From Neoscytalidium dimidiatum (Eukaryota > Ascomycota > Dothideomycetes > Botryosphaeriales > Botryosphaeriaceae): a stretch of 64,000 bases of DNA. Below are positions 31,357 through 64,000 of the stretch, piece by piece. Both the position numbers and the translations under genes were made by a program. The DNA lies in assembly GCA_037367355.1 (NCBI GenBank), contig CM074699.1:3100001-3164000 (forward strand), in the 5' to 3' direction. A model generated the notes under the pieces. The model was not told the origin of the DNA, searched no databases, and was given only the letters and a program-made list of their open reading frames with translations. Numbering within the stretch: position 1 is the first letter of the stretch; every line of letters starts with the position of its first letter.

Positions 31357-32640
31357 GGTATATTCAGTAGTCTCCACAAGTCCAGTAGAAAGCAGACGTG
31401 CCAAATGCGAGGGCCCGAACAAGCGTTTGCAACGGAAACTTTAAGAAGTCAACGAGTACACCTTGTTAACGAAAAAGGTGCATCGGCAACGTTATCTGCC
31501 TCAGAGGTTATCAGATACGCATCGTCGCTGACAGTAAGTAGATGGCTCCGGTGGGATTGAATCGCAAGCCACAAAATGGGGAAATCGCGAGGATAGTAAG
31601 CCTGGTATCCGTCGCGTCAGGACAATGTCAGGAGACCTTCTCGAGAATCCTGATAAGACAGATCAGTCAGATCCGTAATTGATTTCCATGTCTGGGAACG
31701 ATTCACAGAGATTGCGAGTTCCTTGCACGTGGCGGGCATTGCGGTGATGGGTTCGACAGGCTGTCAATTGTATTAGTAAGTGCAACGCGTGGAATTTTCC
31801 CGCTTGCCGCTCCTCCGAGCTAAAGTTGATACTTGGCCCAGAGGCCCTTCAAATGTATGACAAGCACAATTATCCACCCAGCGGCACTTGCCGCCTGATC
31901 CTACCCGCAACCATTAAGGTTTGAACATGAGGCTTAATTCTGCTTATGGACTACTATTGCTACTGTCGTGATTAACATTAACCCCTATTCTCTCTCCGAA
32001 TCACGACATTCCACAGTCGCTTTCCAGCGAGAAGCGTTCGATGCCATATTTTTCTTTGTAGCCCTACATATGTTCCTGCATCGGCGAAGGTGGCCGCTGT
32101 TGAAATTGAAAACCATCGGCAGATGAACAGCCAAGATGGGGAAGTGGAAAAGAGTCAGCGTGGCATGTCCTATTTGTAGATACACTCCGCATGGTCCGTT
32201 TAGAAGGGAAGTCTGTGGGATTTATGTCGTAGAGAAAAAGAGCCATCGTAGAGTCTGGAATTTTCGAGAACAGCCATGCCATGCGCTCACCAACAAGGAC
32301 AAAATTTCCTTAGGTAGCTAAATCATGACAACTGGATAGAAGCGTCAACTGCGTTCTATAACAATTATCTTCTATTCTACAACGCGTATCTAACCGGTCC
32401 ATAACAAAATAAACTCTACGGGTCTACACGAGATAGTACAGTAGGCAGAACAGATATCACAAAAGGTGAACAAACAAATCAGCCAAACAACTCAAACCCA
32501 GCTCAAGCGAGCCAGACAAAAAAAAAAGGTTGACCACAGATTCAAGCCCCACGCGCCAAACTCCCAAAATCACCCTACCCAAAGAAGAAAAAATCTCAAT
32601 CTAAAGAACCACCTACCCCGTCAAACCATCCCCTCCTCTC
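31357..32640. other. Intergenic between NRPS stop and the 2OG dioxygenase
   Basis: About 1.3 kb with the NRPS 3' flank (AT-rich, with A-rich tracts near 32520 and 32590) and the dioxygenase promoter. No gene or known element was recognised. Confidence 0.5.
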
Positions 32641-34114
32641 TCAAAACCTCGCCGTCTCAGACCTCCGAATAACGCTCGCGCTCCTCTCCCTCGCGGCCCT
32701 CGGCTGCTGTCCTACCGCCACCGCCGTCGTCCCCTCCACGAACCCGACCTCAACGAGGTACTCCACATTCCTGCGCACCGCGCGCTTCAACGCCTCCTCC
32801 TCGTCGCAGCCCTCGACCCAGTCGCGCGGCGTCTCGGCGGAGCCGAGGCGGCCCAAGAAGTGCTGCACGGGGTACAGGGGATGGCGCTCGCCGACCTCGT
32901 CCATGTCCTCCTGCGCGCGCAGCAGCCACTCGCTCCACGGGACCTCCTGCCACCGGCCGACGCCGGCCGCCTCGCCGTCGGCGCCCAGCGCGGCCATGAC
33001 CGTTTCCCAGAAGGCCGGGACGGTCAGGCCGGTGGCGACGTCGACGAAAGGGGCGGCCGCCGGCAGGAAGAGCTGCGCGACGACGGCGTGGGCGACGCTG
33101 TGCGCGTCGGCGGCGTAGAGCCAGTGCGTGCGCGGCTCCGACGGGAAGCAGCGCAGGCGCGCGGCCGCCGCGGCGACGCGCCAGACGAAGTCGTCGAGGT
33201 TGCTGACGCCCGTGTCGGCGGCGCCGATGACCAGGCCTGGCTTGACGGTCGAGATGCGGTTCTGGCGCTGGATGGGGAGCTCGTTGCGGCTGTGGTGGTG
33301 GTTGTTGTTGTTCTGTGGCGGGTGCCGTGGCGAGCCCGGCGACGAGTGCAGAGACGAGAGTGGGGACCATGGGGAGCGGGGGGTTTGAGGACGGTTGTGC
33401 TGTTGCTGCCGCTGCTGGTGCGAGTCCAGCTCCTTCGCGACGCTGTGGATCAGTGCCTCGGACAGGAACTTCGTCTGGACGTACCCCGTCCCGTGCGTGC
33501 TCAGCATCTTCGCGGCGGCAGGGACGTCTCCCAGCGTGTCAACTCCCTTGACCCCCCCACCGACGTACACGAACTTGGGATGGGCGGGCGATGACGCCGC
33601 CGCGTCTAGCAGGTCCCTCGTTGCGCCGACGTTGGCGGCCTTCAGTTTGTCGAAGTCGGCGTTCCAGTTAACCACGGCGCCGTTGTGCACGATTGCGTCC
33701 ACGCCTGTCCGCAGCACCTCCCACTGTTTGTCGCTCAGCCCGAGCTTGGGATGGGACAGGTCGCCGACCCAAATGGTCAACTTGGCCGCGTCGCCGACGC
33801 TCCACCAACCCGCGATGTGGGCGGTCTTGCGCACGCGCTCGAGGCCGTGGCGTGGGCTCGCTGCTCGGACCAGTGCGATGACGTGCGCGATGCGGTCGTC
33901 GTGCAGCAGCTTCTCGAGGATGTGCGTGCCCAGGAAGCCGGTCGCTCCGGTCAACAGGACCGCAGCACCCCCTACTGGCAGGGTGCTCGTCGGGTGTACG
34001 AGCAGCTCCCTCGGCAGTGGCGAGACTGATAGGGCGCTGAGCTCCTTTAAGAGGTCTACCTTGGGCTCTTCTTGTTCTTGGAGGGCAGAGCCGGAGCGGG
34101 CGCGACGGACGAAC
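32641..34114 (-). other. NRPS terminal thioester reductase (R) domain
   Basis: Short-chain-dehydrogenase-like release domain. The NAD(P) motif LLTGATGFLG (33916-33960) is followed by a WVGDLS strand, NGAVVNWNADF and TGYVQTKFLSE, whose Tyr-x-x-x-Lys (33466-33486) is the catalytic pair. The strand that normally carries a catalytic Ser/Thr reads VYVGGGVKG (33546-33575). A Gln/Asn/His/Pro/Ser-rich insert of about 45 residues (33285-33430) splits the fold just after the active-site helix. Expected role: two- or four-electron reductive release of the peptidyl thioester. Confidence 0.85.
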
Positions 34115-37100: not shown

Positions 37101-40100
37101 GCGACTCTTCGGATTGCTCTCGCCAAGCGACATCCTCGTCGAGGACAACTTGTCGGGGTCCTTGGCCGGAGGAAAGAACGATGCGCGTGCGCAAGTTTGC
37201 GCAGACGGACGTGGTAGTCGCTAGGGCGGCCTTGAAGCGCGCCATGTCCAGTCCGCGGGGAAGCTGCATAACGAAGCGTGCCATGTACGATCCGGGTTGC
37301 TTCTCCGCCAGCGCGATGAGGCCTTCTTGGAGCGGCGTGCAGGGGAAAGCATCGAGGATTCTGTCTGCGTCGACACGGCATTGCTTGGCTGCTTCGGACA
37401 CCACGGCATCGCGCGTGCCAGCCGGAAGAAGGGCAAAGGGCTCCGTTTCAAAGGTTGATTCGGCCGTCAGCTCGCTCTGCGCTACGGCTGCCATGCGGCC
37501 GAGCCGTGGGTCTGCAAATATTTGGGCCACGCTGAGGCCGAGACCCTGCTCGCGGGCCACGGTCACCAGCTGGATGGCGGTGATGGAGTCGCCTCCGATT
37601 TGGAGGAAGCTGTCGTTCCTGCCGATCGATTCGGGGGCCAACTTGAGCACCTGGGCCCAGAGATCGCGCAGCCGCAGCTCAGTGGCCGTGGTCGGCGCGA
37701 CCTTCTCTTGATCGTCTAGCGAAAACGCGGCCAGCTCATCACGGGACATGCCAGCGACGAGCCCGGCTAGCCTGTTCCTGTCAAGCTTGGTCGAGGTGAT
37801 GAACGGCATGTACTGGAGCGGCAGGAAGAGGGTCGGAACCATATACGGAGGCAAAGCCGCTTTGAGGTCATCAACGAGAGAGACAAGCGCCGCCTTCAGC
37901 GGCTCGTCTGCTGGGGCAAAGATGTCCGAGACGTCGTCGGCGGCGGTGCGGTTCTCCTCGGAGAAGCAGAGGTAGGCAACCAGGGTCGGGTTGCTACCAC
38001 CTTCCATCTTGACAACATCGACGCCCACCTGCTCCACGCCGGCCAGACTCTTCCTGATATTGTGCTCGATCTCGCCCAGCTCGATGCGGAACCCCCTGAT
38101 CTTGACCTGCGTGTCGATGCGGCCGACGAACTCAAGCGTGCCGTCCGGATTCCAGTAGCCCAGGTCTCCGGTCTTGTAGAAGCGGCTGCTGTGCGCATCC
38201 TCGCCGGCCCCCAACCTCGGGGCCCACTCCGGGATATCGTCGATGTACGTCGCCCTCGTCTTCTCCTCGTCCCCGAAATACTCCCTCGAAATCGTGGGGC
38301 CCTGGACGTAGATCTCGCCCACGCACCCCACGGGCGCGAGGCGCTTGTGGTCGCCGGGCTCCACCACCCACAAGTTGCATGCCAACGGCCTGCCGACCGT
38401 GAGCGGCGAGCTGCCCTCGACCTGCGTCCACTCGTGCAGCGAGCTGCAGACGCACGTCTCGGACGGGCCCCACCCGTTCACCAGCCGCACCTTGCCGACC
38501 CACTTCTCCAGGTTGTCGTAGCCGACCGCCTCGCCCGCGACCAGCACCGTCGTCACGCCGGGGATGTCCGCCGGGCTCAGCAGGCGCACGAACGACGGCG
38601 TGAAGAACACCCAGTTGACGCCGGCCCGCCGAATGAAGCCGGGCACGTCGTTCATGCGGTCGCGCTCCGACGGCACGCACAGGCAGGCGCCCGAGATGAG
38701 CGGGCCCACGATCTCGCCGATCGACATGTCGAACACGTGCGAGGCGAACTGCAGCATGCGCACGCCGGCCGAGAGGCCCAGCCAGCGCGCCATCTCGAGC
38801 TGCCCGGTGCACGCGTTGCGGTGCTCCATGACGATGCCCTTGGGCTTGCCCGTGCTGCCTGACGTGAAGAGCACGTACACGGCGTGCTGCGGACCGGCCG
38901 TGGAGGGCAGCGGGCCCGTTGTCGATTCGGCCTGCTGCTTGGACGACAGCTCCGCGTCCAGCGCCTTGCCCACGGTGATGACTTTTTCGGCACCGAGGCC
39001 GCCGCACTTGGCTGCAACAGCTTCGCCCGCCAACATGAAGCGAGTCCCCGTCTGCTCTACGATTTCCCGCCGCCTGGCGTCTGGGTGGCCCGGGTCCAGC
39101 GGAACCCAAGCGCCGCCGGCCTTGTTGACGGCGAGCATGGCGACGTACGTCCAGGCGCTCTTTTCGAAGCAGATGGGAACGAGACAGTCGGGTCCGATAT
39201 CGGTGGTGGCGAGCAGGTGGCGCGCCAGCCTGTCTGACGCCGCGGCCAGCTGCGCGTAAGTGAAGTCGCCGTCCCATGCGTGGATGGCAGGGGCGTGCGG
39301 CCGCTCGCTCGCTTGCTTGTCGACGAGGGCGTGGAAGGTTGTGTGCTGGACGGGCGGGACGGGGCCATTGAAGGACGCGGCGCGCTGTAGGTCGAAGGGG
39401 CCCGCGAGGCTGATATCGGCGATCGTCTTCTCGTTGTTGGCATTCCCTTTGGGTGAGGCGAGGAGCAGCTGTCGGACCACGTGCTCAAACTGGTGCGCCA
39501 GCGCTTCGAGCTGCCCCTCAGACAGCACCGCGGGGTCGTACACGAGGTGCAGGCCGACGCGCTCCTCGGAGATGTGGCCCTGCACCACGAGAGGGTAGGT
39601 GAAGTAGTTTGCTGTCTCAGGCGCAAAGGCTGCGTCTGTGCTCGGAATGAGTATGCTTCCCTCTCCAGCGCTATCAAGTTCCAAGACCTGCGCCGGCTGG
39701 ATCACCAGCAGACTCGAGAAGTCGCAGGCCTCCTTGGCGTCCGGCCCGAGCTTGGCGATGTTCTGCAGACCAAGCTGCTCATATGGCACCATGTCCGACG
39801 CCTGCGCTTGGATATCTTCCAAGAATTTGGACACGGGCGTGTGGTGGTCCAGACGCACGCGCACAGGAACAGTGGCGATGACGGGGCCGGCCATGTTCTC
39901 GACGCCTGGGACGGCGGCCTGCCGTCCGGAGATGCTGGCACCGAAGCACACATCGTCGCTGTCGCTGTAGCGGGCCAGCACGAGCGACCAGGCAGCCCTC
40001 AGGATCGTGGCTTTGGTCACGGAGGAGCCGATGGTACGCGGGAAGGTGATGTCGCGGCTGACTGAAGCGCTAGTGCTGGTTTGATTGTTCTTCCGTGTGC

Positions 40101-43100
40101 GAGGGAACGCCGCACGCTTGGCGGCGCGCAGCTGGTCCTTCCAGTAGGTGCTGGCGGCGTCGATATCGAGGTGCGTCGTGTAGTTGATGAAGCCCCCGTA
40201 CGGGACGACGGCTGGTACCTCAGTTTCCTCGTAGATGCGCTGGAGCCGCTCGAGCATTAGACGCAGGCTCCACCCATCATAAACCGCGTGGTGCATCGTC
40301 CACACAAAGTAGTTGGCGCCGTCGCGGGGGTCCTGCACGAGGGCATATCGACACAGCGGCGAGCCATACTGCATCTCGGCCTTTTGCTCCATTTCCATGT
40401 ACTCGTGGATAGTCTGCCCACTGACCGGTTGCCAGAAGACGTCGTCCTGTAGCACGGCTTGGATAGAGGCGCCACTGAAGAGCACGATTCGCGTGCGGAG
40501 GTTGTCACAGAGACGGACTGTCTCCTCCCAAGCTCGCTGGAAGCGGGCCACGTCAACGTGGCTCGGTATCTCATACACGTAATTGGCGATGTGCGAGCCC
40601 GGTTGCTTAACCGCGAGGGCCATCATGCCTTCCTGGAGCTTGGTGCACGGGTACGCATCCTGAATGACTTGATCATTCGAAAGATTGCATTGATCCCGGA
40701 TATGGCTCTGAATAGCCTCGATATCCATATGTGCGAGCAGACTCCATGGCTCCAGGGCCTGTGCCACTTCCTCTTCTTGATCAACCAGGCCCGCTGCCTG
40801 GGCGACGGCCATCAGACGCGGGTCGTCGAAGATGTTGGAAACAGCCAGGGAAATGCCGTGGTCACGTGCCAGAGTCACTAGTTGAATGGCTGCAATCGAG
40901 TCGCCGCCGAGTTGCAAGAAGCTGTCATCCCGCCCAATCGTGTCAGGGGAGACATGTAGAATGTCCGCCCAGATAGCTTGCAAGCGTCTTTCCATGTCAG
41001 AAGCGGGCTCGCGCTTCTTGGTCTGCGCGAGCGAATACATGGCGAGGGCCTGGGCAGGCAGTGAGGCGGCTAAGTTGCGTAGCCTGTTGCGGTCAAGTTT
41101 CGACGATGTGACTAAGGGCATGTATCGGGTCGGAACGAAGATGGTCGGGATCATGTAGCGCGGCAGGATGACATTCAGCTGGCCGACGGCCGCCGTAACC
41201 TTGCTCTCCAGGTCGCCCGTCAGCGGCAAGAACATGTCGGCGTCGCTGACGTCTTCTTGGGGACGGGTGTCGGTTGACAGGCAGACGAAGGCGATGAGTG
41301 TCGAGCCAGCACTAGTCTCGAACACGTCCACAACGACCTGCTGGACGCCCTCGAGCGTGGCGCGAACGTGGTGCTCGACATCGCCTAGTTCTACGCGCAG
41401 CCCGCGAATCTTGACTTGGGTATCTTTGCGGCTCACGAACTCGATAGTTCCATCGGCATTGTGAAAGCACAAGTCACCAGATTTGTAGAACCTATCCCAG
41501 CCCCGCGAGGAGCGCTTCGGCGCCCACTCGGGCAGCGCAGTCACTGTTGCCGCTGCCGTGCGCTCCGGATCGGACAGGTATTCGCGCAGCATCGTAGGGC
41601 CCTGGATGACGACCTCGCCAACACATCCAGCAGGGACCAAGCGCTGGGGATTGTCGGGCTCAACGATCCAGACCTTTCCGCCAACCGGGCGGCCGATGGT
41701 GAGCGGTGACTCGGTTGGCGACGCCCACTCGTGCAGAGTGCTCACGACGCAGGTTTCGGTAGGGCCCCAGCCGTTGATGAGGCGGACCTTCCCGAACCAG
41801 GTGTCGAGGATGTCCTGCCCGACCGCCTCTCCACCCAAGAGGAGAAGCTCGACCCCGGGCACGTCTTCAGGCTTCAGGGTGCGCGTGAAGGCTGGTGTGA
41901 GGAAGAGCCAGTTGATGTCCATATCACGGACGAACTCCTTGAGCCCGTTGATACGCATGTGCTCCGAGGGGACGCACACACAGGCGCCTGAGATCAAAGA
42001 CGCTACGATCTCGCCGATGCAGAAATCGAAAACGTAGGAGGCGAACTGGAGGATCCGCACGTCGGGTGTAAGGCCGAGCCTCTTGCTAATGGCCGTCTGG
42101 CTCGTGCACACGGAGGCGTGCTCCATGACAATGCCCTTCGGCGCGCCGGTGCTGCCCGACGTGAAGAGAACGTAAGCAGCGCTGCGTGGGGAGACGTCGC
42201 AGGCCGGCGGGTGGGAGCTGGTGTCTGGATTGGCGGCTGCCAGCTGCTCATCAAGGGCTGCGGACACTTGGACGACCGTCTCTACCAGGCTGCTGCATCG
42301 GTCAAAGTTCGCAGGCGATGCGAGCGCGAGCCTGGCACGTGTTTGCTGCACCACCTGGCGCTGGCGGCTTTCGGGATGCGAGGGGTCCAGCGGAACCCAG
42401 GCGCCGCCAGCCTTGCAGATGGCCAGGATGGCCACGAAAAACCAGGCCGACTTTTCAAAGCACACGGGGACGAGCTGGTCTACCTGGATATCAAAGTTAC
42501 TGAGCAAATGGTGCGCTAGGCGGTTTGCGGCGGCGTCGAGTGCACCGTATGTGAAGACGCGGTCCCAGGCACGGATCGCCGGCGCCTCGGGCCGCAGGGT
42601 CGCCTGCCGCTGCACAAGAAGGTGGATGCAGGATTCAATGATTTCCGGCTCATCCTCGCTATTCCAGACCCGTAGCTGCTCCAGCTCGTGCGGGCTGACG
42701 AGGTCCAGATTGGCAATTGGACGCGAGGGCCCCTCGGTCAGTTGGTTGACTACGTGGCTGAACTGAGAGACTAGCCTGTCGATCTGCGTGCTCTGCAGGA
42801 TGGACGAGTCGTACGTGGCCGTCACCTGCATGTCGTCTCCATCGGATAGGTGGCACTGGAACACCAGGGCGTACGTGAAGAATGTCTTCTCGGCGCTGTC
42901 GTCTTGGTTCAGCTGGTGTAGGAACGGCTCTGCCCCGTCAGATGCCGCCGACGGTGCCGCTGTCTGCGGAGGGTGTATGGCTAGTAGCGTCTGGAAGTCG
43001 CACGCCTCGCGCGCATCGCTGCTGAGTTTGGCGATGTTCTGCAGGCCGAATTGCTCATAGGGAATGAGCTGGTTGGACTGGGCCTGCACGTCCTTAGGAA

Positions 43101-52100: not shown

Positions 52101-55100
52101 CCATCACCATCCCCTTGGGCACGCCCGTGGTGCCAGAGGTGAACAGGACGTACACAGCGTGCGCGGGCGTCACGGCTGTCTCAGGGCGGCCGACGGCGCC
52201 CAACTTCTCCTTCAGGCCTGCATCCAGTGCTGGCGACACCTCGACGACGTGCGGCGCGAGCAGGGCAGCGCGCGCCGCGTTTGCTGGCGATGACAGTACC
52301 ACCTGCGCACCCGTCTGGGCGACGATGGCGCGGTGTCTGCCCTCCGGGTGCGAGGGGTCCAGCGGCACCCACGCTCCGCCAGCCTTGTTGATGGCCAGCA
52401 TCGACACAATCACCCAGGCCGACTTCTCAAAGAGAATGGGCACCAGCGTATCCGGGACAATCTGGTGCGCCGCCAGCAGGTGGTGCGCCAGGCGATTGGC
52501 AGCATCGTCGAGCTCAGCGTATGTAAACTGGCCGTCCCATGCCGAGATGGCGGGGGCTTGCGGGCGGATGGCGGCCTGGCGCTCGATCAGCGTGTGGACG
52601 CACTCGTCGACAATCTCAGGCAAGTCGCGGGCGTTCCATTCCGTCATCTGGCGCACATCGCGGGCGCTGCACACATCCACCTCGGCGACTGTCAGGCTGT
52701 CTGTCTGCGGGCCCACGAGCTGCTGGACCACGCGCTCGAATTGGAAGCCCAGCGCCTCGGCCTCTTGCTCGCTGAACAGCCCCGTGTCGAAAGCGATGCT
52801 GACATCAAGCTCATCACTCTCGCCCAGATGGCACTGGAACACCAGCGGGTAGTTGAAGAAGCCGCTGCTGTCCGAGGTGGACAGCTCGGCTCGTGGCTGG
52901 AAGTCAAGGATTGTTGCGTCGCGGTCCTGGGCCGTCAGCCGCGGCGGGTGCACCGCCATTAGACTCTGAAAGTCACAGGCACCGCGAGCGTCCTCGCTGA
53001 CCTTGGCAATATTCTGCAAGCCTAGCTGTTCGTATGGAATCGCGGCGTTGGCTTGCTGCTGCACGTCGGCCATGAAAGCGGCCACCGTCTTCTGGCCGTC
53101 CAGACGAACCCGCACCGGGATCGTCGCGATGGCAGGCCCGATGATTGACTCCATGGACGCAACCGGGGCGTTCCTTCCAGACACCGTGGCACCAAAGACG
53201 ACGTCGTTTGTGTCGGCGTACCGCGCGACGACCAGCGCCCAGGCAGCCCGGACGACTGACGCCTTGGTGACGGCCAGCTGCGACTGTGGCTGGACGTGGA
53301 AGATCTTGCGCCAGACCTCGCCCTCGCCCGACTTGTGCCGGTGCTGGGGTGTGCGGGGGAAGAGCGTGGCCGTGGCACCATCCAGCTCCGTCCGCCAATA
53401 CTGTGCCATAGCCTCGGCGTCCTGGCCTGACACGTAGCGGATAAAGTCTGCGAACCTGCCTGCTTCTCCTTCTTCTCCTGCTTCTCCACCGCTTTCATAC
53501 GCATTATGGAACTTCTCCAACATGAGGCGCAAGCTCCACCCATCGTATACTGCGTGCTGCATCGTCCAGATAAAGTACGCTGTCTGGTCAGCTTCGTTTT
53601 GGATCAGCGCGTACCGCACCAGCGGGCTGCCAAGGTGCATGTGGGCGCTCTTGTCGGCTGCGAGGTAAGCGGCAAGGTCGGTGCCGTGGGTCCAGACCGC
53701 GGCTTCGTTCACGACAACCTGGATGAAGTCCTTGTCGTCGGCAAGACGGATGATGCGGGTGCGCAGAACGTCGGTGGAAGCCTCAACGGCGCGCCAGGCC
53801 TTCTCGAAGCGCGCGAGATCGACTCCGGCGGGCAGCTGGAAGACCAACTGCATGATGTACGAGCCGGCCTGCTTCTCAGTAAGGGCGACCAGACCCTCCT
53901 GCAGCGGTGTGCATGGGTAACTGTCCTGTATCAAGTCCGGGTCGATGCCGCACTGGACTGCAACCTCCTTGCGCAGCACGTCCATCGAGACCGAGTCCTT
54001 GAGCAGGGCGAACGGCTCGAGCACATCCGGCGCGTCCTCCTCCTCTTCTTCCAATTCTTCAACCAGTGCCGCCATCTGTGACAGGCGCGGGCTATCGAAC
54101 ACGGTGCTAACGCTCAGCGCGATGCCCTCAGCACGCGCGGCGGTAATGAGGCGCATGGCGGTGATGGAGTCGCCACCAAGCTGCAAGAAACTGTCATCCG
54201 CACCGATGCTTTCCGGCTCCACCCTCAAAACACCGGCCCACAGCGCCTGCAACCTGGACTCCATGGGCGTCGCGGGCGCGCGTTTCTCCGACGAGGCCAG
54301 CGAGTGGGCGGCGAACTGCTCCTTCGTCAACCCGCGGACGTACTCGCGCAGCAGCTTACGGTCCGTCTTGCCGCTGCCAACGATCGGGATGCGCTTGAAC
54401 GGGACGAACAGCGTCGGCACCATGTACCGCGGCAGCGCCTCCGCCAGCGCGCCAACGAGGTGCGTCAGCGCGGCCGAGATGGGCTTGGTCATGGGCAGCG
54501 GTGCAGTCTCGTCGTCGACCTCGATGCCGTCGAGCAGCCCGCTGTCCTCGGCGAGCGCCACGAACGCGGCGAGTAGGTTGTCCTGCGGGTCGTCGCTCAT
54601 GGACACCACGTCCGCGACGGCGAGCTGCGCGTCCGGCAGGCTGCTCCGGATCTGGTGCTCGACCTCGCCCAGCTCGATGCGCAGGCCGCGCAGCTTGACC
54701 TGGGTGTCCTTGCGGCCCAGGCACTCGAACGTGCCGTCCGGCCGCGCCCTCACCAGATCGCCCGTCTTGTACACCCTGCGCCCAAAGCCGGCAGGCTGCT
54801 CGGGCAGCCAGCGCGGCGCGTCGATGAAGGACGCGGCCGTCCTCTCGGGATCCCCGAGGTAATGTCGAGCCATAAGAGGCCCCTGGACTAGCAGCTCGCC
54901 CACGCAGCCAAAGGGCACGAGCTTGTTGTGGTTGGCGGGATCGGCGACCCAGAAGAGCGAACCGACGGTGGAGCCGATGATGGTTGGGGAGTCGGCGACG
55001 TCCTGGACGGTGTAGGTGGAGCAGACGATGGTGGTCTCGCAGGGCCCGTACACCAGAATTAAGTTGGTCCGTCCAAACCACGTCTCGACGTTGTCCTTGC

Positions 55101-58100
55101 CCACGGGCTCGCCGCCGAACGTCATGGTCCGCATGCATGGCACCAAGTCGGGCGTCAGCAGGCGGCCGACCGAGGGCGTAAGTAGCGTCCAGTTTGCGCG
55201 CATAGCGTTGACGGCGCCGGCGAGGTCGTTCATACGGTCGTGCTCGCTAGGCACGCAGACACAGGCGCCCTGCGAAAGGGCAACTATGGTCTCCATGACG
55301 CTGATATCCATGACGTAGCTGCTGAATTGCAGCACACGCGAGTCCTGGTTCAGGTTCATCGACGAGCCGAACAGCGGTGCGGCGGTCGTCACGGCGCGGT
55401 GCTCCATGACAACGCCCTTGGGCACGCCTGTCGAGCCAGACGTGAAGAGAACGTAGACGGTGTTTTCGGGATTGACGTCAGATAGAACAGCGGAGGCTGC
55501 AGGCATCGAGGCGACAGAGTCTTGCGTCAGCTCGACGACCGTCTCGACCAAGCCCTCGCTGATGTCGCGTGTCGAGGGCGCAACAATCAGGACTTCAGCA
55601 CCCGTGAGTTTACAAATGGTCTGGCGCCGCGCAAAGGGGTGACCGGGATCCAACGGGACGAACGCGCCACCAGCCTTCATAATGCCGAGCATCGCTACGA
55701 GCACCCATTTGGATTTATCCATACAGAACGGCACTAGAGATTCAGGGCCGATGCCGAGGGACTTAAGATGCGCAGCGAGGGCGTCAGACAGCTTGTCGAG
55801 CTCGGCGTAGGTGAAAGAGCCGTCCCACGCGCACACGGCCTCGGCGTCAGGGTGGCTCCTGACGCGCTGGGCAATCATATTGTGCACCAGGTCGGGAGTA
55901 GCCTGCGGAAGAGTGGTGTTGAGAGCGTAGATGCGCTCGAGGTCGTGTGGGCTGCACATATCGACGTCGGCAAGGGGGCAGTCGGCGGAGCTGACCAGCT
56001 GCTTGACGACGAGGCCAAATTGGTGCAGAGCCGTCTCGACTTGCTCTGGAGAGATGATGTTGGCGTCGAAACGCGCGTCGACGTCAATCACGTCGTCGAA
56101 AGGCGTACACTCGAGGATGAAGGGGTACGAGTAGAAACCGTCGTTCATGGCCTCCGTGGCGTTCTCCATGCCCAGCAGATCCGCCCGCGCAACCCCCTTC
56201 TGGATTACCATGAGGGTGCGGAAATTCGTAGCCTCCCTCGCGTCGGCGCTCAGCTGGGCAATGTTCTGCAGACCCTTCTGCTCGTACGCAATCATGTCGG
56301 CTGCCTGCTGCTGCACCTCCTCCAGGTACTCTAACTTCGACTGCGTAGGCTCGACGCGCACGCGGACCGGCACTGTTGCAATTACCGGACCGATCATGGC
56401 ATCAATGCCGCCCAGCGGCGCATTCCTACCGGACAGCGTTGAGCCAAAGATGACGTCCTCCGAGTCCGTGTACCGTGCTAGCACGACGGCCCACGCGGCA
56501 CGCAGGATAGTTGGCATAGTGATGTCGGAGCCGGCAGCGCGCCTGCAGGGGACGCGCAGGTGCAACGCGGCATCTGCGCGTTTGGGCGTTTGCTTACTCG
56601 GGAGGCGGGGGAATGGTGTGAGCTTTGCGCCCGCCGTCTGAGCGGTCCAGTACGCGTCAGAGCCGTCGCCGTTGGCCTCGTCGAGGTACTTGACGAAGAT
56701 GGAAAAGGGGAGAACTTTGGCGAGGGCCTGCCCGTTGTAGGCTTTTTGCACGTCTTGCATGATGAGCGGTAGGCAGAAGCCATCGTACAGGGCGTGGTGC
56801 AACGTCAGCACGAGGCACCTTCCATGTCTCTCGTCGTTGGCGACGGCGAAGCGGATCAGTGGCGCGCCGTATGTCATGAGCGCGCGCGGGTCCTGATCCA
56901 GGTATGGCTGCAGCTTGCCCACGGTGTCCCAGTGGAAGTCGTCCTCGAGCACGACCTGCACGGACGCGCGGTGGGTGAACTGGACTAGGCGCGTGCGGAG
57001 AATCTCGCGGGCAAGGACGACCGTCTGGAACGCCTTACGCAGCCGGTTGATGTCAATGGAGGCGGGTACCTTAAGCACGTTTCTGGCAATGTAGGCTCCG
57101 GCCTGCTTGATCGAGATGGCCATAAGGCCTTCTTGTAGCGCTGTGCATGGGTACGCGTCTTGGACCTTGGAAAATTCGACGCCGCACTGGGCACGCACTG
57201 CCTCGGAGAGCTGATCGCGAGAGAGGTCGCTAGGGAGCAGCGAAAACGGTTCTAGCACCTGCACGTTCTGATCCTCGCGGATGGTTGCGAGAGCGAGTTG
57301 AGAGAGGCGGGGGTCCTTAAAGATCCTCGCGACGGTCAGGGTGAGGCCTCGCTGGCGCGCGGCAGACACGAGACGCATTGCCGCGATAGAGTCGCCGCCC
57401 AGCCGCAAGAAGCTGTCCTCGGCGCCGATGGACTCGGCATCGATGTCAAGCACTGCAGCCCAGAGGTCGCGGAGCTCGAGCTCCATCTCCGTGGTCGGCA
57501 TGCGCTTTTCCGAGCCGGCTAAGGAGTAGCTGGCCACCTCTGCAGGAGACATGTTCTCTGCAATCTCGACCAGCTTCTTACGGTCGCTCTTGCCCGAGAC
57601 GGCGAGGGGGAGCCGGCGCAGCGGGATGTAGAGGCTCGGAATCATATACTGCGGCAAGGCGATTGCGAGCGTGCTCATGAGGTCTGCGATTGCCGTTTCC
57701 AGCTCCGCGTCCATCGGCATCAGCCACGACGCATCATCCCCATCTGCGCTCTTGCTGGAATCATCACCACCAAAGTAGAGGAAGGCGGCGAGCTGGGCCC
57801 GTTGGGCGCCCTGGACCGGCTTCACGATGTCCACGACAACCTGCTTGGCGCCTTGCATTTTCTCCTGCACGTGATGCTCGATCTCGCCAAGCTCCATGCG
57901 CTGCCCGTTGAGCTTGACCTGCGAATTCTCCTTGCGGCCCATATACTCGATGCTCCCGTCAGGCAGATAGCGCACAAGGTCGCCTGTGCGGTACACGCGC
58001 TTGCGCAGACCAGAGACATCGACACGGTCGGTGAGGAAAGGCGGGTTTTCGATGAAGGCGGCGGCCGTCTTCTGGGCATCGTGCAAGTAGCCGCGGGCGA

Positions 58101-61100
58101 GCAGCGGGCCTTGAGCAAACAGCTCGCCCACGCAGCCCACCGGGCTGAGTCGTGATTCGTCCGTCGGGTCGACGATCCAGCACTTGCAGCTGACCGGCCG
58201 ACCGATGGTGGCGGGAGGCGCGTCCGGGGAAGTGATCTCGCGTGCGACGGTGGTGACGGTGCATTCGGTAGGACCGTACGAGTTGATGAGCCGGACCTTA
58301 CCTAGCCACTGCGCGATGTTCTCCGGCTTGACTGCCTCTCCGCCGAGCACCAGTGTCTTCAGAGACGCAGCGTCCTCAGCACGCACCAGGCGCGAGAATG
58401 ACGGCGTGAACAGGGCCCAGTTGGCCTGCATTTCGTTGATAGCTGCCGTGATATTGTTCATCCTAGCCTCCTCCGAGGGCACGCAAACGCAGCCGCCGGC
58501 CATGAGCGTGGTGAGGATTTCGACGATGCTGGCGTCGAAGACGTGCGTGGAAAACTGCAGCGCCCGCGTCTCTTTCGACACGCCCAGGGCTTTGCCGTGG
58601 CCAGCGGCGCTGGAGCACAGCGTCTCGTGGTCGATCACAACACCCTTTGGTTTACCCGTACTGCCTGAAGTGAACAAACAGTACGCAGCGTTGTTTGGCT
58701 CCGCTCTTCCGACCAACGGCCCGGCAGGCTCCGGTAGCGATGAGACGTATGCTTCTGACAGCTCTACCACACTGGCCACAGTCCCAGGGGCAAATTTTGC
58801 CGCAGTTGAGGGGGTTGTAATCATGACCCTGGCGTCCAGCTGTTCGATGATGTCGAGCAGGCGGTTCGTTGGGTGCGACGGCTCCAGTGGCACGAACGCA
58901 CCGCCAGCCATCATAACGGCCAGCTGCGCAATCACGTACCAAGCCGACTTTTCAAAACAGCATGGCACAAAAGTCTCAGGGCCCACTCCAAGCTCAACGA
59001 GGTGGATAGCCAGCTTCGTGACTGCACGGTCCATTTCCTGATAGGTGAAGTCACCATTCCACGCGACGATGGCCATGTCGTCAGGGTGCACGGTTGCGCG
59101 CTGGAGAATGAGGTCGTGGGCGCAGGCCGTCACCACCTCGGGCATCTTGCTGTTCCACTCCTGGATGCGGAGCATGTCGTCCTCGGTCAACATATCGATG
59201 TCAGCCAGCCTCTGGACAGCCCCGCTGGTGAGCTGCTCCATGACGCGCTGGAACTGAGCGCAGATTGCCTGCATCAGCGGAGCGGGCACGACGTTGGCAT
59301 CGTGCAGCGCGTGCGTCTCAACGGCGTTGCCGGCGAAGCGGCACTCGATGATGAGCGGGTAGGTGTGGAATCCGGCGCCGTGGACTTTTTCCATGTTCAT
59401 TCCAAGCGGAGGCTCGGCGTCTTGTCCCACCGGCTGCACCACGAGGAGGCTCTGGATCGAGGACACGTTCTCCGCGCCGGCGCCCAGCCGGGCTATGTTC
59501 TGGAGACCGAACTGCTCGTAAGGAATCATGTCGGTGCCCTGGCTCTGCAGGCTGCTCAGGAACTCCGGAATGCTTTGCTGCGGGTCCAGGCGGACGCGCA
59601 GCGGGACGGTGGCGATAGTGGGGCCGACCATCTGGTCGACGGAGCGCACGTTTGCGCTGCGGCCGCTGACTGTAATTCCGTAGATGAGATCGTCGGTGTT
59701 GGCGTGCTTGGCCAGTACAATTCCCCATGCAGCGCGGAGAAGCGTGGAGAGCGTGATTCCGGGGTGTGCTTGCGTAGCCACTTCGATGTTATGAATGACC
59801 TCGCCATCCACGCGAGGTTTGTCCGCAAGGGGCGGCGCTGGAAAATTAGTTCTGCTGGACTCGGCCAGCTGGCTGCGCCAGAAGTCCTCTGCTTCCGGCG
59901 TTGCCTGGCTCTGGGTGTATCGGATGAACTCGGCGAAAGCGGCGGGCATTTCCAGCTCGTGGCCGCGGTAGGCTTCCTCAACCTGCTGCAGGATCAATGG
60001 AAGACACTGGCCATCGTAGAGGACGTGATGGGCAGTCCAGACGAAGAACCGCCGGCCGTCGCTCTCTTCGGCGATGGCGTACCGCGACAGGCGGCCACCG
60101 ATGGCCATGGGGATCTCGGCATCTTGCTGCATGTAGGCGTCAACGTCTGTCGTGGACTTCCACTCTATTTCCTCGCCATCAAGAACAACCTGCACAATGC
60201 CGGCAGCCTTGGTGTCGACCAGCCGGGTCCGCAACATGGCGTGAGTGCGGAGCACCGTGGCCCAAGCAGACTTGAATCTTTCCAGGTCCACAGTGGCAGG
60301 CAGGAGGTACGCGATGCGGCCAGTGTATGACTTGGGCTGCTTGTACGAAAGAGCCATCAAACCGACCTGCAGCGGAGTGCACGGGTACACATCAGAAATA
60401 TTTTGCGCATCAACGCCGCACAGTTCAGAAACCTCTCTCCGCAGGCTGTCGACGTCAACGTCGTCCGGCAGCAAAGAGAAGGCCTCCAGGACTTGTAGCT
60501 GCTCTGGGTCATCCACAACCGCGCGGGCAGCCATTTCCGCCAGAGTAGGGGCCCTGAAAATGGTGGCTACGTCCAAGCGCATGCCCTTCTGCATAGCCGC
60601 CGTGACGAGCTTCATAGCAGCAATGGAGTCGCCGCCCAGGCGGAAGAAACTGTTGCTGCGGCCGATCAGCCTCGCGTCGATCCGCAGCACCTCGGCCCAG
60701 AGCCTTTGCAGCAACTTCTCCATGGGCGTTGCCGGCACCTCTTCGCTCTTAGCTGTATCGAGCGAGAAGCTGAGACGCTGCTCGGCGGATAGGGACGCGC
60801 CCATCTGCACGAGGGCGCGGCGATTCACCTTGCCGGACGTCGTCTGCTCGGGGCTGCCTTGTACGACGAGGTAAAGAGATGGCACCATGTAAGACGGCAG
60901 AACCTTCGCCAGCGACGCGTCCAGATCCGATATCAGAGCGCGCAGGTCCGGCGACAGGGCCTCGGCGAAGCGGGCCGGGCCGGGCTGGAAGTGCGGTCCA
61001 CCAGTGAACCAGAGGAAAAGGGTGAGGGCGTCAGCCTGGCCATCATCTGCCTTGAGCACCTCGACCAGCGAGGCCGCCGTGTCCGGGAGCGCCTCGTGAG

Positions 61101-64000
61101 CCCGGGATTCGATTTCGGAGAGCTCGACGCGCTGGCCGTGCAGCTTCACCTGCGTGTCCCTGCGACCTACGAAATCGTAAGTACCGTCCCCATTCTGCCT
61201 TACCAAGTCCCCTGTGCGGTACACCCTCCTCTTGCCTCCTCCGGGGAGCCAGTCCACGTCCTCCAGCCAGTTCGCGGCGGCCTTGGCGTCGACGTTGAGG
61301 TAGCCGCGCGCGAGCATGGGCCCTTCGATCAACAGCTCGCCGACGCATCCCAGCGGTACGAGGCGCCTAAAGTCAGCAGGGTCGACGATCCAAAAAGCAC
61401 TGCAGAGGGGTTTCCCCAGGTTAGTGGTCTTCTTGCCGGACTTACCCAGCGCCGGGTTCCAGGCGCAGACGGAGGCCTCGGCGGGGCCATATAGGCCATG
61501 CAGCGCCACCGAGTCCTTCCAGCGGTCGGCGGTGCGCGGGGCAATGGCCTCGCCGCCCAGCGCGAGCAGCTTGAGGCCCGGCACGCTGCGCGGGTCCAGC
61601 ATGTCGGCAACGGTGGGCGTCAGGAAGGCCCAGGTGGCGCCGAGGGTGTTGATGGCGCCTGCGAGGTCGTTGACGCGCTGCGCGTCCGACGGTATGCACA
61701 GTGTGCCGCCGCGCGCCAGCGCCGTCAACGGGTCAAGCACGCCCATGTCGAACGTGTACGCCGAGAACTGCAGCACCCGCGTGCCAGGGCCGATTGAGAG
61801 CTCCTTGGGGTATGCCCCCGCCACCGTGGCCGTACCGCCGTGCTCCATGACCATACCCTTGGGCTTGCCCGTGCTACCGGACGTAAAGATAACGAAGCTA
61901 GCGTTGTGAGGCTGTACCGACGATGTCACGGGCTCCGTTGGGACTGGCAGCGCGGCGAGGATGTCCTCGTCGACGCAGAGGACGGTGACAGCCAAGTCTT
62001 GGAGCTTCTCGGCTGTAGAGGGAGCCGCGAGGACGAGCGTAGCTTCCGTGTCCTCAAGAACGCTCTGCAGCCGCGCCTTGGGCGCGCCGGGGTCCAGCGG
62101 CACAAATGCTCCGCCCGCCTGCAGGACCGCAATCATGGCAACCACGGCCCAAGTGGACTTGGGAAAACAGATGGGCACCATCACTTCAGGGCCGACGCCG
62201 AGGCGCTGCAACCGCTGCGCCAGCCGCGATGCGTGGGCCCCGAGCTGCGCGTACGTGAGATCGCCGTCCCACGATGCAATGGCAGGCGCGTCTGGGCGCG
62301 CCTCAATCTGCTCTTCGATAAGCCAGTGCACGCATGACTGCTCCCGCCGGGGAACATGGCACTCGGCTGCCAGCTGGGCCAGATCCCTGTCGCCGACGGT
62401 CACAGCAGCTGATGGCGTAGCGTCGGGGCTGCTCGTAATGAAATCCAGGACCTTAGTGAAGGAACTCGCCAGGCTGTCGGCCTGCGCCTCAGACATGACA
62501 GAAGTTTGATATGCCAGCTGGAAGGCCAGCCCTTTGGCCGTGGAGTCGATAGTGAGGGTAATATCGTACTACAGGAAAAACAGTCAGCATAGAACGGATT
62601 TGCACGCGGGCCTAGCAATTTACCTCGGTGGAGGCGTAGTTGACCATCTGCTTGAAGCTTATGGCGGAATCGCCGTCCGTCTCGCCAATGGCCGTGTAGT
62701 CAATAGACATGAGCGTGTTGAAGAGCGGTAGCCCGTCCAGGCCCAGGGCATTCTGGATCTCGGCAAGGGAGCTGTGCTGGTTCACAAAACTGCGGCCAAG
62801 CGTGTTTTGCAGATCTTGGAGCAAGCTGCTGAAGCTCGCATAGCCGCCAAAGTCTATGCGGCAGACCAGCATGTGGATCAGGCAGCCGACCATGGATTGC
62901 AGATTAGCGAGTGGCGCGTCACGGCCTGATGAGAGGAAACCAAAACAGACGTCGTCGGACTGGGTGTAGGCGCGGAGTACAGTTCCCCAGACCGCTTGCA
63001 TGAGGGTCGCAAACGTAACGCCCTGCGCCTTGCAAAAGCCTTGGAGGTTCTTCATCGAACCAATGGCGATAGAAACGGATTTGAGCTCCACCGGTTTTGA
63101 GACATGGTCCACTATGGACGGGAAGTGGCATGGGCTGACACCCTGGAGATGGTCGGCCCAGTACTGCAGCGCAGGTTTCTTCGCATGCCGTTGGAGATAG
63201 GAGATGTAGTCGCTGAACAGAGGGGCGGGTCCCGGCGGAAGCAGCCCGCTGTACGCGAGTCTGAGGTCCCTGAAGATGACGCCCGCAGACATGCCGTCTA
63301 CCACGGCGTGGCTGATCTCCAACTTGCAAAACACGCGACCGTCGGCCGTCCTACAAGCAGTCAAGCGGTGGGCGGGCTGAGCATCCACGAACTCAGCAGG
63401 TTCCAACGCGTTCAGGACCGGGGTGGCTGCCGTGCCATTTCTGAAGGGGCCTATCCGCGCAATCTCCGGCTCGATGCTTCGGAGCACGACCTGATCGAAC
63501 ATGGCGCCCTCGCGCGAGCTCGTAACAAAGACGGTCCGCAGAGCTGCATGGCGGCTGACAACGGTCCGCCAAGCGTCCTCGAGCTTCTCCAAGTCCACCT
63601 TGGCGGGTCCGTAGCTTTCTACCTCGAACACGCGCTCGATGCGGTAGCTCTCGGGAAACCGGATCCGAGCGAGCAGGATGCCTTCCTGGACTGCAGAGCA
63701 CGGGTAGGCGGTTTCGATTGCCGCGCCTTCCAGCGCTGCCAGCTTATTCCCGGTGAAGTCGTCCAGTTCGTAGTATGTGTCGAGCGAGAGGAGTGCGAAG
63801 TCTGTGAGGGAGTAGATTGGAGCTGAGGATACCAGAGAGGAAAGACCGCCCTGAAGCAGCTCCTGACAGCGATCCACCCAGTTCATAACGTCCTCGCGGC
63901 GCTGGAGATTCCGCGGGTGATCAAACTCGAGCGTTACATGGTTGCGCATGTCAACCCTGACGGTTATTTCAAAAAGTGCCTTTGATTCGCGTGATCTCTT
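32641..64000 (-). CDS. Giant non-ribosomal peptide synthetase, at least ten modules, reductase-terminated (5' end off the window)
   Basis: Cytosolic assembly-line enzyme that builds a peptide from amino acids held on phosphopantetheine carriers. The visible part, 10,434 residues, has two exons: 62624 to beyond 64000, and 32641-62568. They are joined in frame by a 55-nt intron. At the right edge the frame is still open and reads the tail of an epimerisation-type domain, so more modules lie upstream. Nine complete C-A-T modules follow, then a terminal NAD(P)-binding reductase domain; there is no thioesterase, methyltransferase or internal epimerase, as module spacing is a steady 3.2-3.4 kb. Each carrier has GGDS with its Ser. 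The peptide should be released by reduction. It is followed on the same strand by a 2OG dioxygenase and a P450. The N-terminal loading domain, decisive for lipo- or acyl-peptides, is not visible. Confidence 0.95.
34115..37484 (-). other. NRPS visible module 9 (C-A-T), last module
   Basis: The C domain has IHHSMYDG. The A domain has FTSGSTGKPKG, GYGPAEATI and SGKLDR, and pocket D-V-G-M-I-G-G-I-Y-K. A basic Ser-rich insert with repeated KRAS/KRSS motifs lies at about 34571-34690. The carrier motif HLGGDSIRIITLG differs from the others, as expected for a carrier that meets a release domain rather than a C domain. Confidence 0.8.
37485..40794 (-). other. NRPS visible module 8 (C-A-T), paralogue of modules 4 and 7
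   Basis: The C domain has MHHAVYDG. The A domain has GGAWVPLDP, FDMSIGE, GWGPSETCVC and STKLDR. Pocket D-M-G-F-L-A-G-V-C-K, the one of the three closest in my memory to peptaibol Aib-type pockets. Carrier QIGGDSITAIQL. Confidence 0.8.
40795..44114 (-). other. NRPS visible module 7 (C-A-T), paralogue of modules 4 and 8
   Basis: The C domain has IHHAVYDG and is close to that of module 4 in the regions GATVSGRNAPV and IIGPAIAT. The A domain has GGAWVPLDP, FDFCIGE, GWGPTETCVV and SSKLDR. Pocket D-F-G-F-L-G-G-V-V-K. Carrier QLGGDSIAAIQL. Confidence 0.8.
44115..47394 (-). other. NRPS visible module 6 (C-A-T)
   Basis: The C domain has LHHAIYDG. The A domain has FTSGSTGKPKG, AYGPTESCI and SGKTDAR. 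Pocket D-A-L-I-V-G-A-I-A-K, compatible with a bulky aliphatic residue. Carrier QVGGDSVSAIRL. An acidic/Ala-rich linker follows the carrier. Confidence 0.8.
47395..50679 (-). other. NRPS visible module 5 (C-A-T)
   Basis: The C domain has AHHSIYDG. The A domain has an acidic insert (KEESKEEDDH) just before FTSGSTGKPKG, then GYGPTETCV and SGKADR. Pocket D-A-F-F-I-G-G-V-F-K. Carrier RLGGDSIAAMRL. Substrate not assigned. Confidence 0.8.
50680..54064 (-). other. NRPS visible module 4 (C-A-T), paralogue of modules 7 and 8
   Basis: The C domain has QHAVYDG, with the first His replaced by Gln and the catalytic His kept. The A domain differs from modules 1-3: GGAWVPLDP, FDMCIGE, GWGPSETCVV, and ALKLDR in place of SGK-DR (the Lys remains). 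Pocket D-M-G-F-F-A-G-V-V-K. An Asp/Asn run encoded by a GTC-type microsatellite (51455-51487) sits before the TGDL-equivalent. Carrier RLGGDSIAAIRL. Confidence 0.8.
51455..51487. repeat. Trinucleotide (GTC/GTT) microsatellite inside NRPS module 4
   Basis: Eleven consecutive GTN-type triplets encode an Asp/Asn run on the minus strand in a surface loop of the fourth adenylation domain. Length variation here would change only loop length, as the unit is three bases. Confidence 0.7.
54065..57284 (-). other. NRPS visible module 3 (C-A-T)
   Basis: The C domain has LHHALYDG. The A domain has FTSGSTGVPKG, VYGPCETT and SGKTDR; the A4 motif starts with Met-Asp rather than Phe-Asp. The pocket reads D-I-M-L-T-G-V-I-V-K. 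Carrier QLGGDSITAMRL. An acidic linker (Glu-rich run near 54035-54060) joins it to module 4. Confidence 0.8.
57285..60524 (-). other. NRPS visible module 2 (C-A-T)
   Basis: The C domain has a canonical AHHVLYDG. The A domain carries FTSGSTGKPKG, SYGPTEC and SGKSDR. The pocket reads D-A-V-L-V-G-S-V-T-K, which is rather hydrophobic with a Ser and a Thr. Carrier motif RLGGDSIAAMRL. An aliphatic or small polar substrate would fit; this is inference. Confidence 0.8.
60525..63740 (-). other. NRPS visible module 1 (C-A-T)
   Basis: The C domain starts near AYPCSAVQEG and carries SHAVVDG instead of HHxxxDG, keeping the catalytic second His. The A domain has FTSGSTGKPKG, TGDLV and SGKVNR. Its binding-pocket positions read by eye are D-M-L-F-A-G-L-V-C-K (GrsA numbering). 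The carrier motif is RLGGDSIAAMKL. The substrate cannot be assigned. Confidence 0.8.
62569..62623 (-). other. Intron of the NRPS gene (55 nt)
   Basis: On the minus strand the donor is GAG|GTAAAT, a branch-like GCTGAC lies near the end and the acceptor is CCTGTAG. Splicing joins NYASTE to YDITLTIDSTAKG in phase 0 inside the first visible condensation domain, linking the two long frames. No other intron is needed in the rest of the visible gene. Confidence 0.9.
63741..64000 (-). other. C-terminal end of an epimerisation-like domain in the NRPS
   Basis: The open frame at the window edge contains ALFEITVRVD, then LEFDHPRNLQRREDVMNW and RCQELL, then LTDFALLSL. This order is the one seen where a fungal epimerisation domain ends and the next condensation domain begins. 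Known family behaviour would make the residue of the upstream module D-configured and the first visible C domain a D-to-L type. A condensation-like domain is the alternative; only its last 60-odd residues are visible. Confidence 0.65.

What the first reader, a model, noticed from the sequence alone, without database searches (positions are those of the whole stretch)
32641..64000. Giant reductase-terminated NRPS with at least ten modules
Nine complete C-A-T modules plus the tail of an epimerisation-like domain are visible and the frame is open at the window edge, so the full synthetase exceeds 10,434 residues. Such length with a terminal R domain is known for peptaibol and other long fungal peptides, but this architecture (E-type tail, nine uninterrupted C-A-T units, R) does not match a cluster I can name. 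The product should be a linear peptide alcohol or aldehyde of at least ten residues.
Basis: partly seen in the sequence, partly recalled or inferred. Interest (0 to 1): 0.88.

Follow-up and report, generated by a model that had tools for sequence, protein, structure and literature searches.

The report
Leucinostatin-type fungal lipopeptide synthetase gene
A very large fungal gene, with helper genes beside it, looks built to make a fatty, helix-forming peptide of the leucinostatin kind; it is an unusual relative of a known pathway rather than something wholly new.

Summary
The synthetase is real and uninterrupted. With DNA beyond the window edge it is one gene of 10,807 residues: ATG at 65119, one 55-bp intron, stop at 32641. 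It has nine C-A-T modules, not ten or more, behind a leading carrier without an activating domain, and ends in a reductase (R) domain. Leucinostatin synthetase LcsA is PCP-(C-A-PCP)x10-NAD, so the layout has a name. A domains 4, 7 and 8 fall in one supported clade; in LcsA, Aib is placed at 4, 7 and 8. Beyond the edge lie homologues of TqaL and TqaM and a HAD hydrolase in the role of TqaF (the Aib-making trio), a reducing PKS, an acyl-AMP ligase, ABC, ABC1 and lactamase-fold genes. The host is a Dothideomycete, perhaps near Macrophomina, for which a leucinostatin-like cluster is in print (PMC7530617). Oddities: the R domain has glycine where 23 of 23 alignable relatives have serine, and a fatty-acid-synthase alpha subunit without a pantetheinyl-transferase domain lies in the cluster. 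Substrates and product are inferred. New member of a known kind.

The parts
32641..64000 (-). NRPS gene, 10,807 aa, as far as it lies in the window; it begins with ATG at 65119 in continued numbering (G000:C5 = 3100000 + n); exon 1 65119-62624, intron 62623-62569, exon 2 62568-32641
63800..64000 (-). end of a remnant in the position of a C/E-type domain, without an HHxxxDG half; the remnant runs to about 64564, before it the leading carrier T0 (64759-64565) and the A-domain stump (65119-64790), both past the window edge
   Evidence: 23-27% in the best 14 of 71 matches; no Pfam match for the remnant; PF00550 for T0
60520..63799 (-). module 1, C-A-T; A1 in a clade with 'GLYGPAE' A domains, Pro-type by analogy with LcsA A1
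57283..60519 (-). module 2, C-A-T
54061..57282 (-). module 3, C-A-T
50677..54060 (-). module 4, C-A-T, Aib-type A domain; C motif QHAVYDG
47392..50676 (-). module 5, C-A-T
44113..47391 (-). module 6, C-A-T
40792..44112 (-). module 7, C-A-T, Aib-type A domain; no counterpart in the six-module Podospora/Cercophora proteins
37480..40791 (-). module 8, C-A-T, Aib-type A domain; no counterpart in the six-module Podospora/Cercophora proteins
34114..37479 (-). module 9, C-A-T; A domain sister to the last A domain of P0101 (97/89)
32644..34113 (-). R domain (NAD_binding_4), predicted fold like PhqB and MxaA R domains; Gly at aa 10502 where 23 of 23 alignable relatives have Ser; Tyr10528 and Lys10532 kept
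33256..33426 (-). low-complexity insert of about 55 aa in the R domain after the YxxxK helix
27687..28752 (-). cytochrome P450 pieces, possible tailoring enzyme
30242..31440 (-). 2OG-Fe(II) oxygenase pieces (DIOX_N + 2OG-FeII_Oxy), possible tailoring enzyme

Best explanation
This is the core synthetase of a leucinostatin-type lipopeptide (peptaibiotic) cluster in a Dothideomycete. An acyl chain from the nearby reducing PKS is activated by the acyl-AMP ligase, passed (perhaps by the thioesterase-like protein) to the leading carrier T0, and joined by C1 to a Pro-type residue. Eight more modules add residues, with Aib at 4, 7 and 8; the Aib is made locally from valine by the TqaL homologue, the HAD hydrolase (TqaF role) and the TqaM homologue. 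The R domain then releases a linear N-acyl nonapeptide, by reduction if it is still active. Shown: gene structure, module count and order, the clade of A4, A7 and A8, the families of the neighbouring genes. Inferred: substrates, starter, release chemistry, product, and that the neighbouring genes act with the NRPS.
For: Architecture psiA-T-(C-A-T)9-R against LcsA PCP-(C-A-PCP)10-NAD (PMC4946873 passages). In an A-domain tree of 46 rows W4, W7 and W8 fall in one clade (100/100) with relatives' domains bearing codes such as DLGYLAGCFK, and W9 is sister to the last A domain of the Purpureocillium takamizusanense NRPS P0101 (97/89). LcsA A4, A7, A8 are reported as one clade incorporating Aib, and A1 as predicted proline. 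W6 and W7 match P0101 modules in order by both C and A domain, W8 by C domain, W9 by both. The TqaL homologue matches structure 7EEH at 468 bits, the TqaM homologue 9m09 at 295 bits; no other PF10014 match was found in the 43.8 Mb genome. Domain types of lcsA, lcsC, lcsD, lcsH, lcsO and lcsR are present, lcsE and lcsT less surely. [quoted passage not shown] the FAS alpha of this cluster is 83% identical to an M. phaseolina protein.
Against: Nine modules, not ten. No class IV aminotransferase (lcsP type) near: 5 matches found in the genome, the one on this contig 1.4 Mb away. One PKS in the region, against two in lcs. The R domain lacks a serine its relatives keep. W2, W3, W5, W6 do not form one clade here, whereas LcsA A2, A3, A5, A6 do. 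The clade of W4, W7, W8 also holds A domains with other codes, e.g. P0028 A1 (DMSIIGAAAK). The A domain of the P0101 module matching W8 by its C domain is degenerate and nearer to W7 (30%) than to W8 (28%). The thioesterase match is below the Pfam cut-off, the SDR nearly without match. LcsA and its neighbours were not in any sequence set compared; correspondence of neighbours is by domain type. TqaF rests on family (best PDB matches are haloacid dehalogenase / L-azetidine-2-carboxylate hydrolase), and the best PDB match of the TqaM homologue is an unnamed class II aldolase-fold protein, 9n43, at 324 bits.
Confidence: 0.82

Rival explanations
1. A true peptaibol synthetase of the Tex1 kind: acetylated, Aib-rich peptide released as an amino alcohol.
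For: Aib-type A domains and homologues of the Aib-making trio; terminal R domain alignable with those of Trichoderma NRPSs.
Against: Tex1 begins with KS-AT-ACP (PMC11610996 passage); here the start is a bare carrier behind an A-domain stump, and a reducing PKS and acyl ligase lie in the region. The nearest relatives by identity are from Sordariales (order of Podospora appendiculata).
Confidence: 0.08
2. An aspercryptin-like pathway (comparison from recall) in which a dedicated fatty acid synthase makes the lipid part or a lipid amino acid.
For: A FAS alpha subunit with ACP serine, KS and KR residues kept lies between the NRPS and the tqaL homologue; its nearest relatives include an M. phaseolina protein at 83%.
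Against: No FAS beta found in the region; the two beta subunits found are on another contig. The subunit has no PPT domain. A PKS and acyl ligase are also present.
Confidence: 0.06
3. A decaying synthetase: the assembly line is full length but no longer releases product because the R domain has lost a catalytic serine and gained a low-complexity insert.
For: Gly at the position where 23 of 23 aligned relatives have Ser (27 of 50 matched stretches set aside for gaps); insert of about 55 aa, most of it with pLDDT below 50.
Against: No stop or frameshift in 10,807 codons; ten carrier serines, nine C-domain second histidines and the R-domain Tyr and Lys are kept. That this serine is the triad serine is inferred from alignment with the PhqB R domain; the modelled triad of the Trichoderma virens domain has Ser and Tyr 34 residues apart, here the spacing is 26.
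Confidence: 0.15

Closest known systems
Leucinostatin synthetase LcsA and lcs cluster, Purpureocillium lilacinum (PMC4946873, passages read)
   Same: Leading PCP, repeated C-A-PCP, terminal reductase; A domains 4, 7, 8 in one clade; Pro-type A1; reducing PKS, acyl ligase, ABC transporter, ABC1 and lactamase-fold genes; thioesterase-like and SDR-like genes less surely
   Different: Nine modules instead of ten; one PKS instead of two; no class IV aminotransferase found nearby; FAS alpha subunit and Aib trio in the region (not among the domain types in the lcs gene table seen); R-domain serine replaced
Leucinostatin-like cluster of Macrophomina phaseolina (PMC7530617, passage read)
   Same: Class Dothideomycetes; FAS alpha of the region is 83% identical to an M. 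phaseolina protein
   Different: One passage seen in print; no sequence of that cluster's NRPS was compared, and whether the FAS alpha is in that cluster was not tested
Uncharacterised NRPSs of Cercophora scortea (P0003) and Podospora appendiculata (P0004)
   Same: Modules 1-6 collinear; A2, A3, A4, A5 sister to W2-W5 (100/99 or 100/100), A1 and A6 in the same 100/100 clades as W1 and W6; same type of last carrier and R domain
   Different: Six modules; nothing corresponding to the extra three before the R domain; database gene models lack the N-terminus
Tex1-type peptaibol synthetases (PMC11610996, PMC2835699, passages read)
   Same: Terminal R domain; Aib in the product
   Different: Tex1 has a KS-AT-ACP loading module and 18 modules
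TqaL/TqaF/TqaM Aib pathway of Penicillium (PMC11880133, PMC12192607, passages read)
   Same: Homologues of TqaL and TqaM by sequence, HAD hydrolase in the TqaF role
   Different: Here beside a giant NRPS; TqaF not compared with a TqaF sequence

Membership tests
Leucinostatin-type (lcs) cluster | NRPS of PCP-(C-A-PCP)n-R layout | tested here: met
   n = 9, LcsA has 10
Leucinostatin-type (lcs) cluster | Ten modules | tested here: not met
   nine A, nine C, ten T
Leucinostatin-type (lcs) cluster | A domains 4, 7 and 8 of one Aib-type clade, Pro-type A1 | tested here: met
   the Aib and Pro meaning is by analogy with LcsA and recall
Leucinostatin-type (lcs) cluster | Reducing PKS and acyl ligase for the starter | tested here: met
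   by domain type; one PKS of two
Leucinostatin-type (lcs) cluster | Thioesterase (lcsE) and SDR next to the NRPS (lcsT) | tested here: inconclusive
   matches below cut-off
Leucinostatin-type (lcs) cluster | Class IV aminotransferase (lcsP) | tested here: not met
   of 5 matches found in the genome the only one on this contig is 1.4 Mb away
Leucinostatin-type (lcs) cluster | Product is a leucinostatin | not testable with these tools
   needs chemistry
Peptaibol synthetase (Tex1 type) | KS-AT-ACP loading module in the NRPS | tested here: not met
   N-terminus is A tail + T
Aib-making trio | TqaL and TqaM homologues | tested here: met
Aib-making trio | TqaF homologue | tested here: inconclusive
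   HAD hydrolase of the right family; no TqaF sequence compared
Reductive-release R domain | Rossmann motif and Tyr-Lys | tested here: met
Reductive-release R domain | Serine of the Ser-Tyr-Lys triad | tested here: inconclusive
   Gly where 23 of 23 aligned relatives have Ser; equation with the triad Ser is inferred
Aspercryptin-type FAS-linked NRPS | FAS alpha and beta pair in the cluster (recalled) | tested here: not met
   alpha only; beta subunits found elsewhere

The most novel reading that the evidence does not exclude
The synthetase releases its peptide by a route that does not need the usual Ser-Tyr-Lys triad: a Tyr-Lys pair alone giving an aldehyde, hydrolysis, or hand-over to another enzyme. 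And the orphan FAS alpha subunit, which has no pantetheinyl-transferase domain, works with a housekeeping beta subunit to feed this one lipopeptide: a mixed fatty acid synthase dedicated to an NRPS.
Probability: 0.2. Interest if true: 0.6.

Novelty: new member of a known kind. Interest (0 to 1): 0.42.

Why it matters
It gives sequence-level detail for leucinostatin-type biosynthesis outside the Sordariomycetes, where one survey called such a cluster unexpected. Six modules (Podospora, Cercophora), nine (here) and ten (LcsA), collinear where they could be compared apart from extra units before the R domain, are a natural series for asking how giant synthetases gain or lose modules. The single tqaL homologue found in the genome makes the Aib prediction easy to test.

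Tried and rejected
Considered and rejected: (1) more modules upstream: only an A-domain stump; 12 of 13 minus-strand frames of 60 aa or more ending by 67250 gave no A-domain match. A whole-genome search for AMP-binding domains scored only 14 of 111 candidates and so says nothing here. (2) An aspercryptin-like FAS pathway as the main reading, suggested by the FAS alpha: weakened by the Aib trio and the PKS and the lack of a beta subunit. (3) A pseudogene: no stops or frameshifts; kept only as a rival for the R domain. (4) Code strings in the literature: five searched, 0 papers, so the Aib meaning of the codes is recalled and by analogy with LcsA. (5) Botryosphaeria lipopeptide NRPS: 12 of 30 papers listed, mostly bacterial; PMC8336260 has no word beginning 'peptaib'. 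(6) PMC6367777 has no 'leucinostatin'. Search results were seen as listings; of the papers cited, passages only were read. Rows dropped: 27 of 50 matched stretches with a gap at one of four columns; the A-domain tree used the window protein and 7 of the 18 relatives extracted (46 rows). The host was inferred from FAS sequences only.

Full report
The observation. Stop-to-stop frames show an uninterrupted minus-strand frame of 9,975 codons from 62568 down to the stop at 32641. Upstream, a GT..AG intron of 55 bp in phase 0 (62623-62569) joins it to a second frame that leaves the window. The next 36 kb of the same contig (G000:C5, fetched) show that this frame begins with ATG at 65119; the predicted protein has 10,807 residues. 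It has nine A, nine C and ten carrier domains and a terminal reductase domain. W1-W9 below are the nine modules.

The start. Residues 1-110 are the tail of an A domain without its catalytic core, followed by a carrier (PF00550, E 1.9e-12) and a remnant in the position of a C/E-type domain. Of seven matches of this tail in a set of 235 homologues, six lie at or near the N-terminus of other giant NRPSs, such as P0243 (Trichoderma barbatum), P0241 (T. chlorosporum) and P0038 (Paramyrothecium roridum). Of the 13 minus-strand frames of 60 aa or more between the gene start and 67250, 12 were run against Pfam and none matched an A domain. The stump is thus shared with relatives and the gene start is sound. 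LcsA of leucinostatin is described as PCP-(C-A-PCP)x10-NAD (PMC4946873, passages).

Relatives. The homologue search scored 429 candidates and listed 120. The top two by score are from JGI data, without an organism name, at 40% identity; the highest identities are Podospora appendiculata P0004 (57%) and Cercophora scortea P0003 (56%), proteins of about 6,600-6,800 residues with six modules. W1-W6 match their modules 1-6 in order at 45-62% identity for C and A domains; P0004 lacks C1. In an A-domain tree of 46 rows W2, W3, W4 and W5 are sister to the corresponding pair (100/99 or 100/100); W6 is in a 100/100 clade with A6 of both and P0101 A1; W1 is in a 100/100 clade with A1 of both and with P0038 A2 and P0028 A3 and A5, these five being joined first (88/84). 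W4, W7 and W8 fall in one 100/100 clade of 16 rows, and W9 is sister to the last A domain of P0101 from Purpureocillium takamizusanense (97/89). Against P0101, W6 and W7 match in order by C and A domain, W8 by C domain only (47%; the A domain there is degenerate, 28-30%), W9 by both; P0101 has one module more before its last A domain, and its gene model is cut within a W5-like A domain. The C domain of W9 is about equally near to both candidate C domains of P0101 (44% and 41%).

Specificity. Ten-residue codes were read by motif. W4 DMGFFAGVVK, W7 DFGFLGGVVK and W8 DMGFLAGVCK resemble relatives' codes DLGYLAGCFK and DLGFLAGVFK, which I recall as Aib/Iva codes of peptaibol synthetases; five strings searched in the held library gave 0 papers. 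The published LcsA model puts Aib at A4, A7 and A8 and finds these three in one clade, the same three positions as here. The clade also holds domains with other codes, so it is not proof. W1 belongs with GLYGPAE-type domains; LcsA A1 was predicted as proline. W2, W3, W5 and W6 do not form one clade here, unlike LcsA A2, A3, A5 and A6.

The neighbourhood. Past the window edge, in continued numbering (G000:C5 = 3100000 + n; loci L009-L012, L022, L023): a possible SDR next to the NRPS (66.2-67.3 kb, minus strand, nearly without match), a FAS alpha subunit (70784-75798, minus), a TqaL homologue (77308-78543, minus; 468 bits to structure 7EEH), ABC transporter pieces (80931-84084, plus), an ABC1-domain gene (84647-86749, plus), a TqaM homologue (86967-87780, minus; 295 bits to TqaM 9m09, 324 bits to the unnamed 9n43), a HAD hydrolase (88638-89405, plus; 176 bits to a haloacid dehalogenase / L-azetidine-2-carboxylate hydrolase), a lactamase-fold gene (95037-96404, plus), an acyl-AMP ligase (97054-99219, minus), a thioesterase-like gene (101444-102429, minus, below cut-off) and a highly reducing PKS with KS-AT-DH-MT-ER-KR-ACP in exon pieces (103073-111230, minus). 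TqaL, TqaF and TqaM make Aib from valine (PMC12192607 and PMC11880133, passages). PF10014 has a single match in the genome. The lcs gene table lists reducing PKSs, acyl ligase, thioesterase, ABC_tran, ABC1, Lactamase_B and an SDR next to lcsA; the correspondence here is by domain type, not by sequence comparison. Not found here: a class IV aminotransferase and a second PKS. On the left, P450 and 2OG-Fe oxygenase pieces lie within 5 kb of the NRPS stop. That all these genes form one cluster is inferred from position.

The host. The FAS alpha gene is 83% identical to a Macrophomina phaseolina protein and 88% to an unnamed one, then identity drops to 57%. The housekeeping FAS alpha, compared with the 120 listed proteins, is nearest to Delitschia confertaspora (86%), with Lentithecium and other genera at about 85%; these two and Macrophomina are Dothideomycetes by the taxonomy, the other genera by recall. 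The 120 were chosen by likeness to the cluster's FAS alpha, so nearer housekeeping relatives may be missing. The host is therefore a Dothideomycete; nearness to Macrophomina rests on one cluster gene, which could have been transferred. [quoted passage not shown] The kind of system is thus already in print for this class.

The R domain. AlphaFold2 gives mean pLDDT 75.7, mostly 80-96 in the Rossmann core; the best PDB match is the PhqB reductase domain 6nki (TM 0.86 by target length), then MxaA. Of 50 stretches matched among the relatives, 27 had a gap at one of four columns and were set aside; the 23 others have Ser-Gly-Tyr-Lys, the window protein Gly-Gly-Tyr-Lys. In the 16-row alignment the column is nearly invariant Ser. 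A Ser-Tyr-Lys triad was modelled for the Trichoderma virens synthetase, Tyr as proton donor and Ser as stabiliser (PMC2835699, passages). I equate the two serines from the alignment with PhqB, where a serine faces the glycine; the spacing to Tyr differs (26 here, 34 in that model), so this is an inference. The domain also has a low-complexity insert of about 55 residues. Whether release is still reductive cannot be decided from sequence.

The FAS alpha subunit. ACP serine, KS Cys-His-His and KR Tyr-Lys are present; the last glycine of the KR Rossmann stretch is alanine, as in the two nearest relatives. The PPT domain of the housekeeping copy is absent here and in the four nearest database proteins, at least two of which may be fragments; the M. 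phaseolina protein ends like ours. The genome search found three alpha and two beta subunits, both beta on another contig. Its role is unknown.

Verdict. The finding is genuine but a relative of a known pathway: a nine-module, leucinostatin-type lipopeptide synthetase with a local Aib supply. Gene structure, order and family are shown; substrates and product are inferred.

Noticed in passing
L010:784-5798 (70784-75798 in numbering continued past the window): FAS alpha subunit with active-site residues kept but no phosphopantetheinyl-transferase domain and no beta partner found nearby; the M. phaseolina homologue (83%) ends the same way.
   Followed up: partly
window 33256-33426: Low-complexity Q/N/H/P-rich insert in the R domain just after the YxxxK helix.
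   Followed up: partly
P0101 (Purpureocillium takamizusanense), residues about 3200-3560: The A domain of the module that matches W8 by its C domain has a degenerate A3 motif, so this relative may have lost one activity.
   Followed up: no
G000:C2:2549000-2564000: A second, divergent FAS alpha/beta pair besides the housekeeping one, alpha about 43-54% identical to the proteins compared.
   Followed up: no
window 3704-4997: Glycosyl hydrolase family 28 pieces.
   Followed up: no
window 9387-14386: FAD-dependent aromatic-ring hydroxylase pieces and an S15 / X-Pro dipeptidyl-peptidase-type hydrolase side by side.
   Followed up: no
window 15353-16363 and 23700-24725: Fungal transcription factor domain; GLEYA domain.
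   Followed up: no
window 32000-33000: G+C rises from about 50% left of the NRPS to about 59-66% within it.
   Followed up: no
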